NCBI GenBank assembly: GCA_021496505.1
Contig: CP053031.1
Coordinates: 1,240,001 to 1,304,000, forward strand
Reading direction: 5' to 3'
DNA: 64,000 nucleotides
DNA from: Thermoleophilia bacterium SCSIO 60948
Lineage (GTDB): Bacteria; Actinomycetota; Thermoleophilia; Solirubrobacterales; 70-9
How positions within the stretch are numbered: position 1 is the stretch's first letter; the number at the start of each line of letters is the position of its first letter. The notes under the pieces were generated by a model. That model did no database searches. It was not told the origin of the DNA and saw only the letters and a program-made list of their open reading frames with translations. This document shows, piece by piece, positions 15,731 to 54,642 of the stretch. The position numbers and the translations under genes are program-made.

Positions 15731-16501
15731 ATGGTCTCCGAGCTCGACCTCGATCTCGACGTCTTCGCGGGTCCCTTCGACCTGTTGCTCGCCGTCGTAC
15801 TGCGCGAGGAGATCGACCTCGCCGAGGTCGATCTGGCGGAGATCGTCGTCACCTACGTCGATCACCTCGAGGAGGCCGGCGAACTCGACCTCGAGGCGGC
15901 GACCGAGTTCCTCGTCCTGATCGCCTCGCTGCTCGAGCTGAAGTCTCGCCTGCTGCTTCCGGCCGAGGAAGAGGAGGAAGCCGAGCTCCAACCCGAAGAG
16001 GCCGCCGACGAGCTGCTCGCGCGGATGCTCGAGTACCAGCGCTACCGCAACGCTGCCGAGCACATGCGAGACCTTCACGCTGACGGCCGGCCCTACCTCT
16101 ACCGCTCGGCTCCGCTCCCACCGGAACTTCGCCGCGTCGCCTTCGAGGCCGTCAAGCCGGTCTACGCGCCGTCGCGTCTCGCACAGGCGATCGGCGACCT
16201 GCTGCGAGAGCCCGAGCGCCCGGACCTCTCGCACATCCGCCCGACGGTCTCCCTCCAGGCGCGCCTCGGGGTCCTGCGCTCGCTGCTCCGCGGCTCGAGC
16301 CGCGTCGACTTCGACGAGGAATTCGGTTCGGAGGACCGCCTGACGCAGGCCGTCACGTTGTTCGCCCTGCTCGAGATGCACAAGCGCGGTGAGGCGACCT
16401 GGGAGCAGGGTTCGACCTTCGGCCGGATCGCGATCGTCCCCGCCGGCGATGCGGGAGCGGCGAAGGGTCCGAGGTTCGGTGGGGAGGCGGCCGGTGGCTG
16501 A
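15731..16501 (+). CDS. scpA: Segregation and condensation protein A (kleisin)
   Basis: Kleisin that bridges SMC heads and recruits ScpB. 256 aa. The N-terminal FAGPFDLLLAVVLREEIDL and VDLAEIVVTYVDHLE, then FLVLIASLLELKSRLLLP, are ScpA signatures. A winged-helix segment near the C-terminus (RLTQAVTLFALLEMHKRGEA) would bind the SMC head. ATG 15731 is set by TAGTCT (15717-15722) 8 nt upstream; the open frame further upstream lies in trpS. It overlaps scpB by 8 nt. The SMC partner in this window lacks a hinge. Confidence 0.94.
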   Translation: MVSELDLDLDVFAGPFDLLLAVVLREEIDLAEVDLAEIVVTYVDHLEEAGELDLEAATEFLVLIASLLELKSRLLLPAEEEEEAELQPEEAADELLARMLEYQRYRNAAEHMRDLHADGRPYLYRSAPLPPELRRVAFEAVKPVYAPSRLAQAIGDLLREPERPDLSHIRPTVSLQARLGVLRSLLRGSSRVDFDEEFGSEDRLTQAVTLFALLEMHKRGEATWEQGSTFGRIAIVPAGDAGAAKGPRFGGEAAGG

Positions 16502-17090
16502 CGGGCTCGAGATCGTCGCGGCCCCGCTCGAGCGGATCGTCGAGGCGCTGCTCTTCCTCTCTCCTGACCCGGTCTCGGTCGCCGACCTCGCCGAGGCGTG
16601 CGAGTCGACCGAGGCCGAGATCGATCGCTCCCTCGACCAGCTCTCGGGCACGCTTCGCACCGGGCGCCGCGGCCTGATCCTGCGCCAGGTCGCAGGCGGC
16701 TGGACACTCGCCTCGGACCCCGCGGCTGAGGCGGCGGCGCGGCGCCTGCTCGCGAAGCCCCGGACCCCGCCGCTCACCCAGGCCCAGGCCGAGACGCTCG
16801 CGATCGTCGCCTACCTGCAGCCGGTCTCGCGGCCCGAAGTGGCGCGGATCCGCGGCGTCTCGTCGGAGTCCGGCGTCAACTCGCTGATCGAGCGCGGCCT
16901 GATCGAGGAGTCGGGGCGGTCGCGATTCGGGGCGGCGATCTACCGCACGACACCGCTGTTCGAGCGCAGCTTCGGACTCGAGGGCCTCGACGCGCTTCCC
17001 GACCCCGCGAGCTTCGACCCCTCGCCCGAGGACGAGTCCGAGCTGCGCGAGCGCCTCCTGAGGGCCGGGGAGCAACGAGCGGGCGGCTGA
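16494..17090 (+). CDS. scpB: Segregation and condensation protein B
   Basis: Winged-helix dimer that binds ScpA in the SMC complex. 198 aa. IVEALLFLSPDPVSVADLAE, LTQAQAETLAIVAYLQPVSR and the EVARIRGVSSES segment are typical ScpB motifs. GTG 16494 is preceded by GGGGAGG near 16480 and overlaps the scpA stop, implying translational coupling. A longer upstream frame was rejected because it lies within scpA. Confidence 0.94.
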   Translation: MADGLEIVAAPLERIVEALLFLSPDPVSVADLAEACESTEAEIDRSLDQLSGTLRTGRRGLILRQVAGGWTLASDPAAEAAARRLLAKPRTPPLTQAQAETLAIVAYLQPVSRPEVARIRGVSSESGVNSLIERGLIEESGRSRFGAAIYRTTPLFERSFGLEGLDALPDPASFDPSPEDESELRERLLRAGEQRAGG

Positions 17091-48149: not shown

Positions 48150-48764
48150 GTGTCGGCGACAGCGCGCGAGAAGAAGGCGGAGTCAGAGCGTCGGCTCGAG
48201 GCCGAGCGGGTCCTGCTCGCGGCGGCCCACGAGCTGCTCGCCGAGGGCGAGTCGCTCAACGAGCTCTCCGTCGAGCGGATCGCCAAGCGTGCCGGGCGAC
48301 CGCGGACCGCCTTCTACCTCTACTTCGCCGACAAGACCGAGCTGCTGATGCGGATGACCGAGACCGTTGCCGCCGAGCTCTACCACGAGGCCGAGGCGTG
48401 GTGGTCGGGGGAGGGGGGCGCGAGCGACATGCGCGAGGCCCTGAAGCGGATCCTGAGGACGTATCGCTCCTACGACGCCCTGCTTCGCACGATCGTCGAG
48501 GTCTCGACCTACGACCGCAGGGTCGGCGACTTCTGGCGCGAGATCATCGCGCGTTTCATCGCGCCGACGCGCGACCGCTTCGTCAGCGAGGGGGCCGATC
48601 CGGCGAGCGCGGAGGCGAAGGCGTTCGCGCTCGTCTGGATGACGGAGCGCAGCTGCTACGAGCACGTCGCCCGTGGGTCTTCGATCGGCGACGAGGATTT
48701 CGTCGAGGCGCTGGTCGAGATCTGGGAGCGCAGCGTCTACGGCGGGTCTCCCGAGCCGCGCTAG
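48150..48764 (+). CDS. TetR-family transcriptional regulator
   Basis: 204 aa. The N-terminal helix-turn-helix region reads LLAAAHELLAEGESLNELS, then VERIAKRAGRPRTAFYLYFA, with the TetR pattern FYLYFADKTELL. The C-terminal half is helical and variable, somewhat like the EthR group. It starts 9 nt after yceD and ends 10 nt before rpmF, whose own -10 overlaps the end of this gene. The regulated target and ligand are unknown; plsX/acpP control is an obvious hypothesis. Confidence 0.88.
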   Translation: MSATAREKKAESERRLEAERVLLAAAHELLAEGESLNELSVERIAKRAGRPRTAFYLYFADKTELLMRMTETVAAELYHEAEAWWSGEGGASDMREALKRILRTYRSYDALLRTIVEVSTYDRRVGDFWREIIARFIAPTRDRFVSEGADPASAEAKAFALVWMTERSCYEHVARGSSIGDEDFVEALVEIWERSVYGGSPEPR

Positions 48765-50288: not shown

Positions 50289-51002
50289 ATGGAGCTCGCC
50301 GCGGTCCCCGACGAGGTCGAGCCCAGGGCGCGGGCGCTCGCCGAGTTGATCGCGGCGCTGCCGCCCGACCTCCATGATCGGTCGCTGGCCCACGCATCGT
50401 GGGTCGACTCTCGCCCCGACTCCTACGGGCGCCTCGCGTTCCTCGGCGATGGCGTGCTCGGCCTGGCGGTCGCCCGTCACCTGTTCGACGCACACCCTCG
50501 CGCCGACATCGGCCGGCTGACCAAGGTCCACGGCCAGGCTGTGTCCGGGCGCGCCTGTGCCGAGGTCGCGCGCGAGCTCGGTCTGCCCGCCCTCGTCGCC
50601 GAGCGCGCGCCTCGCGACCGCGACAGCGCGATCGGCGTCGAGGCGCTCCTGGCGTCCGAGCGCGCGGTCTCGTCGATCTGCGAGGCGGTCATCGGCGCCT
50701 GTCACATCCATCACGGTGCCGAGCCCACCGCCGCCGCCGTGCTCGAGGCGTTCTCGGATCAGATCCGGCTCGCCTCCGAGGAGATGATCGACTTCAAATC
50801 GGCGCTCCAGGAGCGAGTCGCCCGCGATGGCCACCGCGCCCGCTACCAGGTGACGAACGAGGACGGCCCGGCCCACGAGCGGATGTTCGAGGTAGCGGTG
50901 CTCGTCGCCGGCGAGGAGGCGGGACGCGGCGCCGGCCGCTCGAAGAAGGCAGCCGAACAGGCGGCCGCCGAGGTTGCGCTGGCCGCAATCGAGGCCGGCT
51001 GA
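50289..51002 (+). CDS. rnc: Ribonuclease III homologue with degenerate catalytic site
   Basis: 237 aa with an RNase III domain (~1-155) and a C-terminal dsRNA-binding domain (FKSALQERVARDGHRARYQV, then GRSKKAAEQAAAEVAL). Synteny (acpP-rnc-smc) marks it as the rnc locus. The signature helix reads YGRLAFLGDGVL where E. coli has NERLEFLGDS. Aligned to E. coli, E38 is Gly47, E41 is Ala50, E65 is Ile74 and D114 is Ser129; only D45 (Asp54) and E117 (Glu132) remain. Cleavage by the standard two-metal mechanism is therefore doubtful. It may bind dsRNA without cutting. Confidence 0.85.
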   Translation: MELAAVPDEVEPRARALAELIAALPPDLHDRSLAHASWVDSRPDSYGRLAFLGDGVLGLAVARHLFDAHPRADIGRLTKVHGQAVSGRACAEVARELGLPALVAERAPRDRDSAIGVEALLASERAVSSICEAVIGACHIHHGAEPTAAAVLEAFSDQIRLASEEMIDFKSALQERVARDGHRARYQVTNEDGPAHERMFEVAVLVAGEEAGRGAGRSKKAAEQAAAEVALAAIEAG

Positions 51003-51110: not shown

Positions 51111-53471
51111 ATGCACCTCAGCTCGATCAACATCAAGGGCTTCAAGTCCTTCTCGGAGCGCACCGAGCTCGCCTTCTCGCCCGGCGTCAGCGTGATCGTC
51201 GGGCCGAACGGCTGCGGTAAGTCGAACATCACCGACGCGGTCCTCTGGGCGCTCGGCGAGCAGAGCCCGCTGAGCGTCCGTGGCTCCTCGATGCAGGACA
51301 TGATCTTCGCCGGCGGCGAGGGTCGTGGGCCGAGCCAGGCCGCCGAGGTCGAGGTCGTCCTCGACTGCTCGGACGGCGGTGATCCCTCCCCGCTCGGCTT
51401 CTCTGAGATCTCGGTACGCCGCCGGCTCGATCGAAGCGGCGAGGGCGAGTACCGCCTGAACGGCGCCCGCTGCCGGCTGGCCGACGTCGTCGAGGCCCTG
51501 TCCGACGCCAACCTCGGCCAGGAGATGCACTCGGTCATAAGCCAGGGCCGGGTCGAGGAGATCGTCCACTCCAAGCCGCGCCAGCGCCGCGCGCTCGTCG
51601 AGGAGGCCGCTGGGCTCGGCAAGCACCGCAAGCGCCGCCGCCGTGCCCAGCTCAAGCTCGAGCGCACCCAGGACAATCTCGACCGTGCGCTCGACGTCGA
51701 GCGCGAGGCACGCTCGCGGCTGCGGCCGCTCAAGCGCCAGGCCGAGGCGGCCGACATCCACGCGCGGCTCGAGCGTGAGGCGGCCGAGCTGCGCGCCGTC
51801 CTGCTCGCCGCCGAGCTCGGCTCGCACGACAGCGACCTTTCGGCCGCCGAGTCGCGAGCGAAGGCCGCCCGTGAGGAGCGCGGCTCGATCGACGCTGAGC
51901 TCGCGAAGGCCGGCGAGCGCCGCTCGGCGATCGAGGCCGAGCTGGCCGAACGCGACCGCGAGCGCTCCGTCGTCTGGGAGGGGTTGAGCGGGATGCGCGG
52001 CGACCACGAGCGACTGACCGTTCGTGGCGAGGCGCTCGTCGCCCGCCGCGCCGACGTTCTGCAAGCCGTCGAGCGGCGCCGGGCCCGGCTCGGCGCCCTC
52101 GCCGACGAGCTCGACAGGCTCGGCGAGCCGAGCGACGGCGAGGATCCGGTCGGCGCCGGGCTCGACCGGATCGCCGACGCGCTGGGCGAGGCGACCGCTG
52201 GGCTCGACGCCGCCCGCGCCGCGGCCGGCGACGACCAGCGGCTCGCGGGCCTCGGCAGGGTCCGCTCCGCGGGTGAGCGCGCGAACGGCCTTGCCCGGCG
52301 GCTCGAGGAGCTGCTCGGCCGTCGTCGCCAGGGCTCGCTGACCTCACGGCTCGAGGACGAGGCGCGGATCGCCGAGCTGATCGCCGAGCTCGCGGATTCG
52401 ACCGCGAAGGCGCGCGACGCCGTCGGCGCCCGCGTCTCAGCGCTCGAGGCGCGGATCGTCGGCGAGCGCCAGGGCGACGACGTCGCCGATCGCCTGCGCG
52501 CCTGCTCGCGCGCCGAGGCGGAGATCCAGGGGCGGCTGCGGATCGCCTCCGACAAGCTGACCGAGGCCCAGGTGGCGGTCGCCCATCTCGGCGAACGCCG
52601 CGGCGAGGCGGCGGCGGAGCTCGCCCGCGTCGCCGAGGTCCTCGGCCGGGACCTCGAGGCATCGACCGAGCCGCTCGACGACGAGCGGCGCTTCGAGATC
52701 GAGCAGAAGCTCTCCAGGGTGGCCCGCCGACGGGAGGCGCTCGGGCCCGTCAACCCGCTCGCCCAGTCCGAGTACGACGAGGCGCTCGCGCACGTCGAGG
52801 AGCTCGAGACCCAGCGCACCGACCTCGAGGCCGCGCTGAGCGAGCTGCGCGGTCTGATCCGCGAGACCGACGCGACGATCGAGCGCGAGTTCGCCGAGAC
52901 CTTCGCCGCGACCGAGCGCAACTTCACCGAGCTGGTCGAGCATCTGTTCCCCGGCGGCAAGGGCCGTCTGCGCCTCGTCTCCGAGCGCACCCCCGAGCCC
53001 GTGCTGGGCGGCGCGGCGCCGGGTGGCGACGCCGAGGAAGGGTCGGCCGAGCCGGATTCGGGCGCCGAGGAGGCGTCGAGCGACGAGGAGTCGGGGCCCG
53101 ATCCGACGGAGGGGGTCGAAATCGAGGTCACCCCGTCGGGCAAGGCGACGCGCAAGCTCTCGCTGCTCTCGGGCGGGGAGAAGGCGCTGGTCGCGCTCGC
53201 CTTCGTCTTCTCGGTCTTCCTGGCGCGACCGTCGCCCTTCTACATACTCGACGAGGTCGAGGCCGCGCTCGACGACGCCAACATCGATCGCTTCCTCCAG
53301 CTCGTCCGGCGCTTCTCCGACCGCGCCCAGTTCGTCATCGTCACCCACCAGAAGCGCACGATGGACTGCGCCGACGTCCTCTACGGAGTCTCGATGGGCG
53401 GCGGTGGCGTGACCAAGGTCGTCTCGCGCAAGTTCGACGATGGCGTGAGGCGTCTGACCGAAGCCGCCTAG
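51111..53471 (+). CDS. smc: Hinge-less SMC-family chromosome condensation ATPase
   Basis: 786 aa, versus ~1150-1200 in typical bacterial SMC. The N-terminal head is complete: INIKGFKSFSERTEL, Walker A VGPNGCGKSNITDAV (31-38) and the Q-loop region ALGEQSPLSVRG. The C-terminal head has KLSLLSGGEKALVALAF (signature, ~684) and FYILDEVEAALDDAN (Walker B, ~710). Between them lie only about 440 residues of coiled-coil sequence, with a Gly/Pro/Asp-rich break near 337-352 and no SMC hinge motif and no CxxC zinc hook. An acidic loop (~640-675) interrupts the C-terminal head. GGGAG (51101-51105) sets the ATG. Composition is uniform, so a recent deletion or frameshift is not apparent. Confidence 0.88.
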   Translation: MHLSSINIKGFKSFSERTELAFSPGVSVIVGPNGCGKSNITDAVLWALGEQSPLSVRGSSMQDMIFAGGEGRGPSQAAEVEVVLDCSDGGDPSPLGFSEISVRRRLDRSGEGEYRLNGARCRLADVVEALSDANLGQEMHSVISQGRVEEIVHSKPRQRRALVEEAAGLGKHRKRRRRAQLKLERTQDNLDRALDVEREARSRLRPLKRQAEAADIHARLEREAAELRAVLLAAELGSHDSDLSAAESRAKAAREERGSIDAELAKAGERRSAIEAELAERDRERSVVWEGLSGMRGDHERLTVRGEALVARRADVLQAVERRRARLGALADELDRLGEPSDGEDPVGAGLDRIADALGEATAGLDAARAAAGDDQRLAGLGRVRSAGERANGLARRLEELLGRRRQGSLTSRLEDEARIAELIAELADSTAKARDAVGARVSALEARIVGERQGDDVADRLRACSRAEAEIQGRLRIASDKLTEAQVAVAHLGERRGEAAAELARVAEVLGRDLEASTEPLDDERRFEIEQKLSRVARRREALGPVNPLAQSEYDEALAHVEELETQRTDLEAALSELRGLIRETDATIEREFAETFAATERNFTELVEHLFPGGKGRLRLVSERTPEPVLGGAAPGGDAEEGSAEPDSGAEEASSDEESGPDPTEGVEIEVTPSGKATRKLSLLSGGEKALVALAFVFSVFLARPSPFYILDEVEAALDDANIDRFLQLVRRFSDRAQFVIVTHQKRTMDCADVLYGVSMGGGGVTKVVSRKFDDGVRRLTEAA

Positions 53472-53562: not shown

Positions 53563-53640
53563 CCGTGCTAGGTGGTGCCACGACGTGGTGGGGACGCTCC
53601 AGCGCCTCGCGTCACCCGACCCCCGCTAGCCTCGCGCTCC

Positions 53641-54642
53641 GTGCCGACTGAATGGACTGATCTGATCGAGCTCGGTGGTGCCGGGCCGCTCGCCGAGGAG
53701 GAGCCGGCCGGGGAGGAGCGCCGCGGGCGGATCAGGGGCCGCTTCCGCAGGCTCCGCGAGGGGCTTTCGAAGAGCCGCGAGGCGCTTCGCGCCGAGCTCT
53801 CGGCGAGCCTCTTCGACCGCATCGACGAAGAGACCTGGGAGCGCCTCGAGGAGGCGCTGATCCTCGCCGACGTCGGTGCGAAGGCGACGGCGGACGTCGT
53901 CATGCGCCTCGAGGAGGAGGTCGAGGCGGGCAGGATCTCCGAGCCCGATGAGGTTCGCGCGCGGCTGATCGAGCTGCTCTCCGAGCTCGCCGCCTCGGAG
54001 TCGCCGCGTATCGACCTGACCCAGAAGCCGACGGTGATCATGGTCGTCGGGGTCAACGGGACGGGTAAGACGACGACGATCGGCAAGCTCGCTCAGACGC
54101 TGCGATCGCGCTTCGGCCTCTCGGTGCTCGTCGCCGCCGCCGACACCTACCGCGCCGCTGCGATCGAGCAGCTCGAGACCTGGGCGGATCGCGCCGGCGT
54201 CGAGATCGTCCGCGGCGCGCCCGGCGGCGATCCGGGAGCCGTGGTGTTCGACGCGATCGGGGCCGCGCAGGCGCGTGGGATCGACGTCGTCATCGCAGAC
54301 ACCGCAGGCCGGCTCCATACGCACGGCGGCCTGATGGAGGAGCTGACCAAGGTCCGTCGCGTCGCGCAGAAGCGGATGCCAGACGCGCCGCACGAGACGC
54401 TGATCGTGATCGACGCGACCACCGGCCAGAACGGGTTGCGCCAGGCGCAGGCGTTCGCGCAGGCGGTCGAGCTCGACGGCGTCGTCCTCACGAAGCTCGA
54501 CGGCACCGCGCGCGGCGGGATCGCGCTCGCGATCAACCACGAGCTGGGACTCCCCGTGAAGCTGATCGGCGTCGGTGAGGGGATCGAGGATCTGCGGCCG
54601 TTCGACGCTCGCGACTTCGCAACCGCGCTGCTCGGCGAATAG
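53641..54642 (+). CDS. ftsY: Signal recognition particle receptor FtsY
   Basis: SRP receptor GTPase that docks ribosome-nascent chains at the translocon. 333 aa. The N domain covers ~45-115. The G domain has VVGVNGTGKTTTIGKLA, AADTYRAAAIEQLETWA, DTAGRLHTHGGLM and TKLDGTARGGIAL. The acidic N-terminal A domain is very short. GTG 53641 lies 8 nt after TAGCCT (53627-53632). Confidence 0.97.
   Translation: MPTEWTDLIELGGAGPLAEEEPAGEERRGRIRGRFRRLREGLSKSREALRAELSASLFDRIDEETWERLEEALILADVGAKATADVVMRLEEEVEAGRISEPDEVRARLIELLSELAASESPRIDLTQKPTVIMVVGVNGTGKTTTIGKLAQTLRSRFGLSVLVAAADTYRAAAIEQLETWADRAGVEIVRGAPGGDPGAVVFDAIGAAQARGIDVVIADTAGRLHTHGGLMEELTKVRRVAQKRMPDAPHETLIVIDATTGQNGLRQAQAFAQAVELDGVVLTKLDGTARGGIALAINHELGLPVKLIGVGEGIEDLRPFDARDFATALLGE

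What the first reader, a model, noticed from the sequence alone, without database searches (positions are those of the whole stretch)
51111..53471. SMC protein without a hinge
The product has both intact SMC head halves (Walker A, signature, Walker B) but is 786 residues. Only ~440 residues separate the heads, and I see no hinge domain and no zinc-hook CxxC; the apex looks like a Gly/Pro/Asp-rich turn near residues 337-352. SMC normally dimerises through the hinge, so ring formation and loop extrusion would have to work differently, perhaps as a short rod closed by heads and ScpA. scpA and scpB are both present at 15731-17090, so the complex is probably still made. An acidic loop in the C-terminal head is a further oddity.
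Basis: partly seen in the sequence, partly recalled or inferred. Interest (0 to 1): 0.85.

Follow-up and report, generated by a model that had tools for sequence, protein, structure and literature searches.

The report
Chromosome-folding motor without its hinge
This bacterium's only SMC chromosome-folding motor has naturally lost its hinge, the joining piece long thought essential, and relatives show that this has happened several times, which gives a natural test of what the hinge is for.

Summary
The finding holds. Window 51111-53471 (+) encodes a 786-aa SMC with complete ATPase heads, neck and joint, and no hinge. Pfam finds none, and profile-profile comparison gives 0.2% probability against 98% for a positive control. 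It is the only SMC in a one-contig 3.42-Mb genome that has no hinge domain in any frame; ScpA, ScpB and ParB are present. It sits at the standard rpmF-plsX-acpP-rnc-smc-ftsY locus, so it is the orthologue, not a RecN/SbcC-like paralogue.

Most genera of its family share it. The neck-to-joint length is 378-382 aa in all 15 proteins measured, against 664-667 aa in hinge-bearing sister genera. The lost piece runs from a coiled-coil break to the hinge and back, much like the engineered hinge-free Wadjet 'core' that still extrudes DNA loops (PMC12647877). Actinomycetota show several separate losses (at least three changes forced on the tree).

Hinge-less SMCs were already reported from marine Actinobacteria (PMC12153180), so the kind is not new. 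This lineage, its sister comparison, the recurrence and the link to the core-motor result are additions. The acidic head loop also occurs in hinge-bearing relatives. How it dimerises remains inference.

The parts
51111..53471 (+). hinge-less SMC gene, 786 aa
   Evidence: orthologue by synteny
51111..51605 (+). N-terminal head half with Walker A GPNGCGKS (51201-51224)
51618..52115 (+). N-terminal arm helix 170-335; neck part 180-220 strongly conserved (ScpA-binding neck by homology)
   Evidence: AF2; entropy; 3zgx match
52116..52145 (+).
52146..52460 (+). new apex: helix 346-370, turn 371-373, helix 374-450
   Evidence: AF2; strand-length accounting (inferred)
52245..52340 (+). conserved block 379-410 (consensus ARRaEgLLGeRhrER) just below the apex; candidate dimer or DNA contact
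52743..52760 (+). SMC joint motif GPVNPL (545-550)
52986..53105 (+). acidic disordered loop 626-665 in the C-terminal head; shared with hinge-bearing relatives
53166..53276 (+). ABC signature LSGGEK and Walker B FYILDEVEAALDD
15731..16501 (+). scpA (kleisin), only copy in the genome
   Evidence: PF02616 E 7.8e-22; ORF
16389..17090 (+). scpB (kite), identified by its place after scpA and by sequence reading, not by a profile
50289..51002 (+). rnc, upstream neighbour in the conserved smc locus
53572..54642 (+). ftsY, downstream neighbour in the conserved smc locus

Best explanation
Shown: this is the sole chromosomal SMC (smc orthologue) of its genome, and in an ancestor of most of its family the segment from a coiled-coil break through the hinge and back (about 285 aa) was lost, leaving heads, neck, joint and a short arm capped by a helical turn near residue 371-374. 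Inferred: it still works with ScpA and ScpB as the ParB-loaded condensin. Two subunits are joined by ATP-dependent head engagement, by the asymmetric ScpA bridge (neck of one, cap of the other) and by contacts along the short arms or at the new apex (conserved patches around 281-296 and 379-410), giving a short rod or closed lumen. This is a natural 'core-only' motor that can translocate or extrude DNA but lacks the hinge-channel route past obstacles.
For: Sole SMC and no hinge in the genome. Canonical locus in every relative examined, with or without a hinge. ScpA in 26 of 26 good family genomes, same architecture in hinge-less and hinge-bearing members. ParB present. Heads, neck and joint conserved; closest solved match with coil and joint is 5xei, 499 of 517 residues aligned, Z 32. 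Neck-to-joint length fixed at 378-382 aa in 15 of 15 despite about 53-68% identity to the window protein, which argues for function rather than decay. The excised piece is bounded by breaks 353-362 and 657-660 of the sister model. Engineered ecJET lacking its elbow-to-hinge segment still cleaves plasmid, the authors' readout of loop extrusion, if the ring is closed by a crosslink, and cannot bypass obstacles (PMC12647877). Replacing the Bacillus subtilis hinge with a zinc hook supports growth (PMC5344682).
Against: No dimer structure, biochemistry or genetics exists for it. The tip of the apex (364-378) is poorly conserved, so a conserved apical dimer interface is not evident. ecJET(core) stopped cleaving DNA when its engineered elbow disulfide was reduced, so without a real apical closure this protein might not extrude. 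The remaining arm (about 210-230 aa, estimated) lies outside the B. subtilis functional windows of 253-267, 330-373 and 407-435 aa, though those were measured with a dimerisation domain present. AF2 confidence is moderate (pLDDT 76, pTM 0.49).
Confidence: 0.58

Rival explanations
1. A clamp rather than a ring: subunits meet only at the ATP-engaged heads and through ScpAB, with the arms free at the top. The complex condenses or bridges DNA, or tracks on it, without topological closure and without loop extrusion.
For: No recognisable dimerisation domain, no CxxC, variable tip. Heads and the ScpA-binding neck are the most conserved parts.
Against: Strict length conservation of the arm and conserved patches within the arm suggest that the arm does more than hang free. 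ecJET(core) needed a closed ring to act.
Confidence: 0.25
2. Repurposed protein: the hinge-less SMC has left chromosome folding and acts in repair like RecN or Rad50, dimerising at the coil tip.
For: Hinge-free coiled coil resembles RecN and Rad50 in outline; Rad50 heads also align in the structure search.
Against: Clear SMC_prok_B score, canonical locus, ScpA/ScpB/ParB retained, no other SMC to take over, no zinc hook.
Confidence: 0.07
3. Degenerating gene or assembly artefact.
For: Some MAG copies are split or cut, e.g. L048 and L031 in two frames.
Against: Intact single frames in more than 20 assemblies of several genera, invariant ATPase motifs and constant length.
Confidence: 0.01
4. The hinge role is taken by another, unrecognised protein that binds the new apex (conserved block 379-410).
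For: A conserved block stands just below the apex.
Against: No gene of this kind at the locus: the same neighbours as in hinge-bearing relatives. No hinge-fold gene in the genome. Non-homologous partners were not searched for.
Confidence: 0.09

Closest known systems
Hinge-less SMC of marine Actinobacteria (PMC12153180, Environ Microbiome 2025)
   Same: SMC heads with an antiparallel coil, no hinge, no zinc hook, not found beside a normal SMC, in Actinobacteria
   Different: That clade is oceanic, annotated as class Actinomycetes, and branches near the base of the actinobacterial seed sequences. The present clade nests within one order beside hinge-bearing sister genera, with locus, ScpAB, ParB and excision boundaries described here. 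Whether f16 or f34 is the marine clade is not known.
Smc-ScpAB (bacterial condensin; B. subtilis Smc, TIGR02168)
   Same: Head halves, neck, joint, locus, ScpA, ScpB, ParB
   Different: No hinge; about 285 aa shorter between neck and joint than sister SMCs
Engineered Wadjet ecJET(core) (PMC12647877)
   Same: Elbow-to-hinge segment removed, leaving heads and a short arm joined by a short turn; loop-extrusion readout retained with an artificial crosslink
   Different: Laboratory construct of a plasmid-defence SMC closed by a disulfide; here a natural chromosomal SMC whose closure is unknown
Rad50/SbcC
   Same: ABC head with a hinge-free coil
   Different: No CxxC zinc hook here; far weaker sequence match; SMC locus and kleisin partner
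RecN
   Same: Short coil without a hinge
   Different: RecN profile matches only weakly (24.9 bits, cut-off 418); kleisin and kite genes present

Membership tests
Prokaryotic SMC (TIGR02168) | Full-length family score above the curated cut-off | tested here: met
   624.3 bits, cut-off 567.35
Prokaryotic SMC (TIGR02168) | Walker A, signature and Walker B in split head halves | tested here: met
Prokaryotic SMC (TIGR02168) | Hinge dimerisation domain (PF06470) | tested here: not met
   Pfam none at E<=10; hhalign 0.2% against 98% for the f7 positive control; none in genome. It is therefore an SMC orthologue with the hinge lost, not a canonical SMC.
Prokaryotic SMC (TIGR02168) | SMC joint and neck | tested here: met
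   GPVNPL joint aligned with relatives; 5xei head+joint Z 32
Smc-ScpAB complex | Kleisin ScpA and kite ScpB encoded | tested here: met
   ScpA; ScpB by its place and reading
Smc-ScpAB complex | Physical complex and ATP-dependent DNA entrapment | not testable with these tools
   needs biochemistry
Rad50/SbcC | Zinc hook CxxC at the apex | tested here: not met
   no CxxC in the protein
RecN | RecN family score | tested here: not met
   24.9 bits against cut-off 418
Hinge-less SMC (PMC12153180) | SMC without hinge or zinc hook, single copy | tested here: met
Hinge-less SMC (PMC12153180) | Common descent with the marine clade | not tested

The most novel reading that the evidence does not exclude
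Actinomycetota have repeatedly excised the elbow-to-hinge 'periphery' of their only chromosomal SMC, producing natural core-only loop extruders that dimerise by a new short apex and live without hinge-gated obstacle bypass, contrary to the proposal that loss of the hinge channel goes with longer arms.
Probability: 0.42. Interest if true: 0.85.

Novelty: new variant of a known kind. Interest (0 to 1): 0.64.

Why it matters
What the SMC hinge is for is an open question. Recent in vitro work says it is dispensable for loop extrusion and serves obstacle bypass (PMC12647877). Bacteria whose only SMC has lost the hinge, with hinge-bearing sister genera for comparison, make that claim testable in nature. 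Hinge loss here goes with shorter arms, the opposite of the compensation (longer arms) suggested there.

Tried and rejected
Second SMC elsewhere: only weak coiled-coil matches. Divergent hinge: rejected. Zinc hook: no CxxC. Acidic head loop as a novelty: also in hinge-bearing relatives. Apex at 337-352: disfavoured, because it would leave the C-terminal strand about 70 residues too long above the joint and because the loop has a counterpart in hinge-bearing relatives. One origin for the family clade plus G289: rejected, AU p 0.006. Hinge loss in family f1 as two events: not needed, one clade not rejected, p 0.375. A link between hinge loss and few parS sites: one parS-like site in 744 kb (around the contig ends and in the window) of this genome, but none or one in hinge-bearing relatives, so no contrast. 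One-superhelical-turn shortening: the arithmetic is suggestive but boundaries are too uncertain to claim. The dimer and SMC-ScpA complex could not be predicted with these tools.

Full report
What is there. Window 51111-53471 (+) is one open frame of 786 aa starting at ATG. Both ATPase head halves are complete and the protein passes the SMC_prok_B cut-off with 624 bits, matching profile columns 2-334 and 843-1179 and nothing between. Pfam finds SMC_N but no hinge even at E<=10. As a sharper test I compared the profile of the middle part of 15 hinge-less relatives with a profile of 130-odd residues around the hinge from hinge-bearing SMCs of the phylum: probability 0.2%, E 0.36, whereas the divergent hinge of family f7 gave 98%, E 2e-13. 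There is no CxxC, so no zinc hook.

Only SMC in the cell. The genome is one contig of 3.42 Mb (97.65% complete). It has no SMC_hinge match in six frames, while 10 of 14 control genomes do, and no other SMC. ScpA is present once, ScpB follows it and ParB lies near the contig end.

It is the orthologue. In hinge-less and hinge-bearing relatives alike the gene stands in the order rpmF, plsX, acpP, rnc, smc, ftsY, as far as the fetched stretches reach. A repair paralogue is therefore unlikely.

How widespread. Of 249 genomes of the class, 181 have a hinge. In the window's own family only 4 of 50 do, from three genera with SMC frames of about 1080-1100 aa where the frame is whole; the other genera have whole frames of about 780-910 aa. 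So loss is the derived state and covers most of the family. The phylum-wide check adds hinge-less SMCs in families coded f41 (916 aa), f16 (736-773 aa, several genera), f34 (frames of 893-900 aa), f13 (about 1020 aa) and f72, and in one genome (G289) of another family of the same order. Pfam at E<=10 found no hinge in representatives of f41, f16, f34 and f13 (for f34 and one f41 copy the stretch scanned is cut at its C-terminal end), nor did hhalign; f72 rests on the genome-wide search and my reading alone. On a tree of head sequences, holding the family clade and G289 together is rejected (AU p 0.006), while one origin within the family is not (p 0.375). On a wider tree, well-supported branches force at least three changes and the best tree has six. 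These are quick trees with some long branches.

What was removed. Between the EEAAG motif and the joint LGPVNP the hinge-less proteins have 378-382 residues in all 15 cases, the hinge-bearing sister genera 664-667, G289 412. AF2 of the window protein (26-sequence alignment, pLDDT 76, pTM 0.49) gives helix 170-335, a loop, helix 346-370, a turn at 371-373, helix 374-450, a break, helix 456-511 and the joint, with no strand between 170 and 612. The same procedure on the hinge-bearing sister G145 (15 sequences, pLDDT 70, pTM 0.36) gives an N-arm loop at 331-337, helix 338-352, a break, helix 363-442, a mixed alpha/beta hinge, helix 578-656, a break at 657-660 and helix 661-729. Matching the two, the hinge-less proteins lack roughly residues 363-656 of the sister: the helix leading to the hinge, the hinge, and the helix leading back, cut at two opposed coil breaks. 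This matching is my inference from predicted secondary structure, hhalign and length; no coordinates were available to me. It places the apex at about 371-374, not 337-352.

How it may work. Heads, neck and joint, the parts that bind ATP, ScpA and (by homology) ParB, are the best conserved. Within the shortened arm two patches stand out against variable surroundings: 281-296 (RDRERtxxWgxL) and 379-410 (ARRaEgLLGeRhrER). If the apex is at 371-374, the second patch faces the N-arm loop 336-345, and both are candidates for arm-arm or DNA contacts. Liu et al. removed the elbow-to-hinge segment of Wadjet JetC; the remaining core still cleaved plasmid, their readout for loop extrusion, when the elbow was crosslinked, failed to bypass obstacles, and failed altogether when the crosslink was reduced (PMC12647877). 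Burmann et al. showed that a Rad50 zinc hook can replace the B. subtilis hinge and that arm length must fall in certain windows (PMC5344682). I therefore favour a core-only motor closed by arm or apex contacts plus heads and ScpAB (0.58), with an open clamp as the main rival (0.25). Dimerisation, extrusion and loss of bypass are all untested for this protein.

What is known already. Hinge-less SMCs without zinc hook, not found together with a normal SMC, were reported from marine Actinobacteria in 2025 (PMC12153180). That paper had no locus, partner or sister-genus comparison in the parts I read, and saw one clade. The present case is a different position in the tree. G196 has 6,359,369 bases, which I recall as the size of Conexibacter woesei; if right, the order is Solirubrobacterales. 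That is a lead, not a test.

Limits. MAGs dominate the relatives; the AF2 models are of moderate confidence and monomeric; genome search counts are samples.

Noticed in passing
L132, L135, L136 (family f7 of the same class): Very short SMCs of 826-837 aa that keep a divergent hinge (Pfam matches only hinge columns 9-63, hhalign 98%): short arms with a hinge, a useful contrast to hinge loss.
   Followed up: partly
G000:C1:3421068 (L230): Only one parS-like site (GTTTCACGTGCAAC, one mismatch to the 14-base core) in 744 kb around the contig ends and in the window.
   Followed up: partly
L031 and L048: Hinge-less smc split into two frames (772 and 233 aa) in one MAG species, probably an assembly or sequencing error; not examined further.
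   Followed up: no
window 48150-48764: A TetR-like regulator gene stands between the YceD-like gene and rpmF, a place where relatives vary in gene order and spacing.
   Followed up: no
L194, L190 (family f13): SMC of about 1020 aa with no recognisable hinge but long Ala-rich coils: hinge loss without such arm shortening.
   Followed up: partly
window 52986-53105: Acidic, probably disordered loop in the C-terminal head, variable in length, shared by hinge-bearing and hinge-less members of the family.
   Followed up: partly
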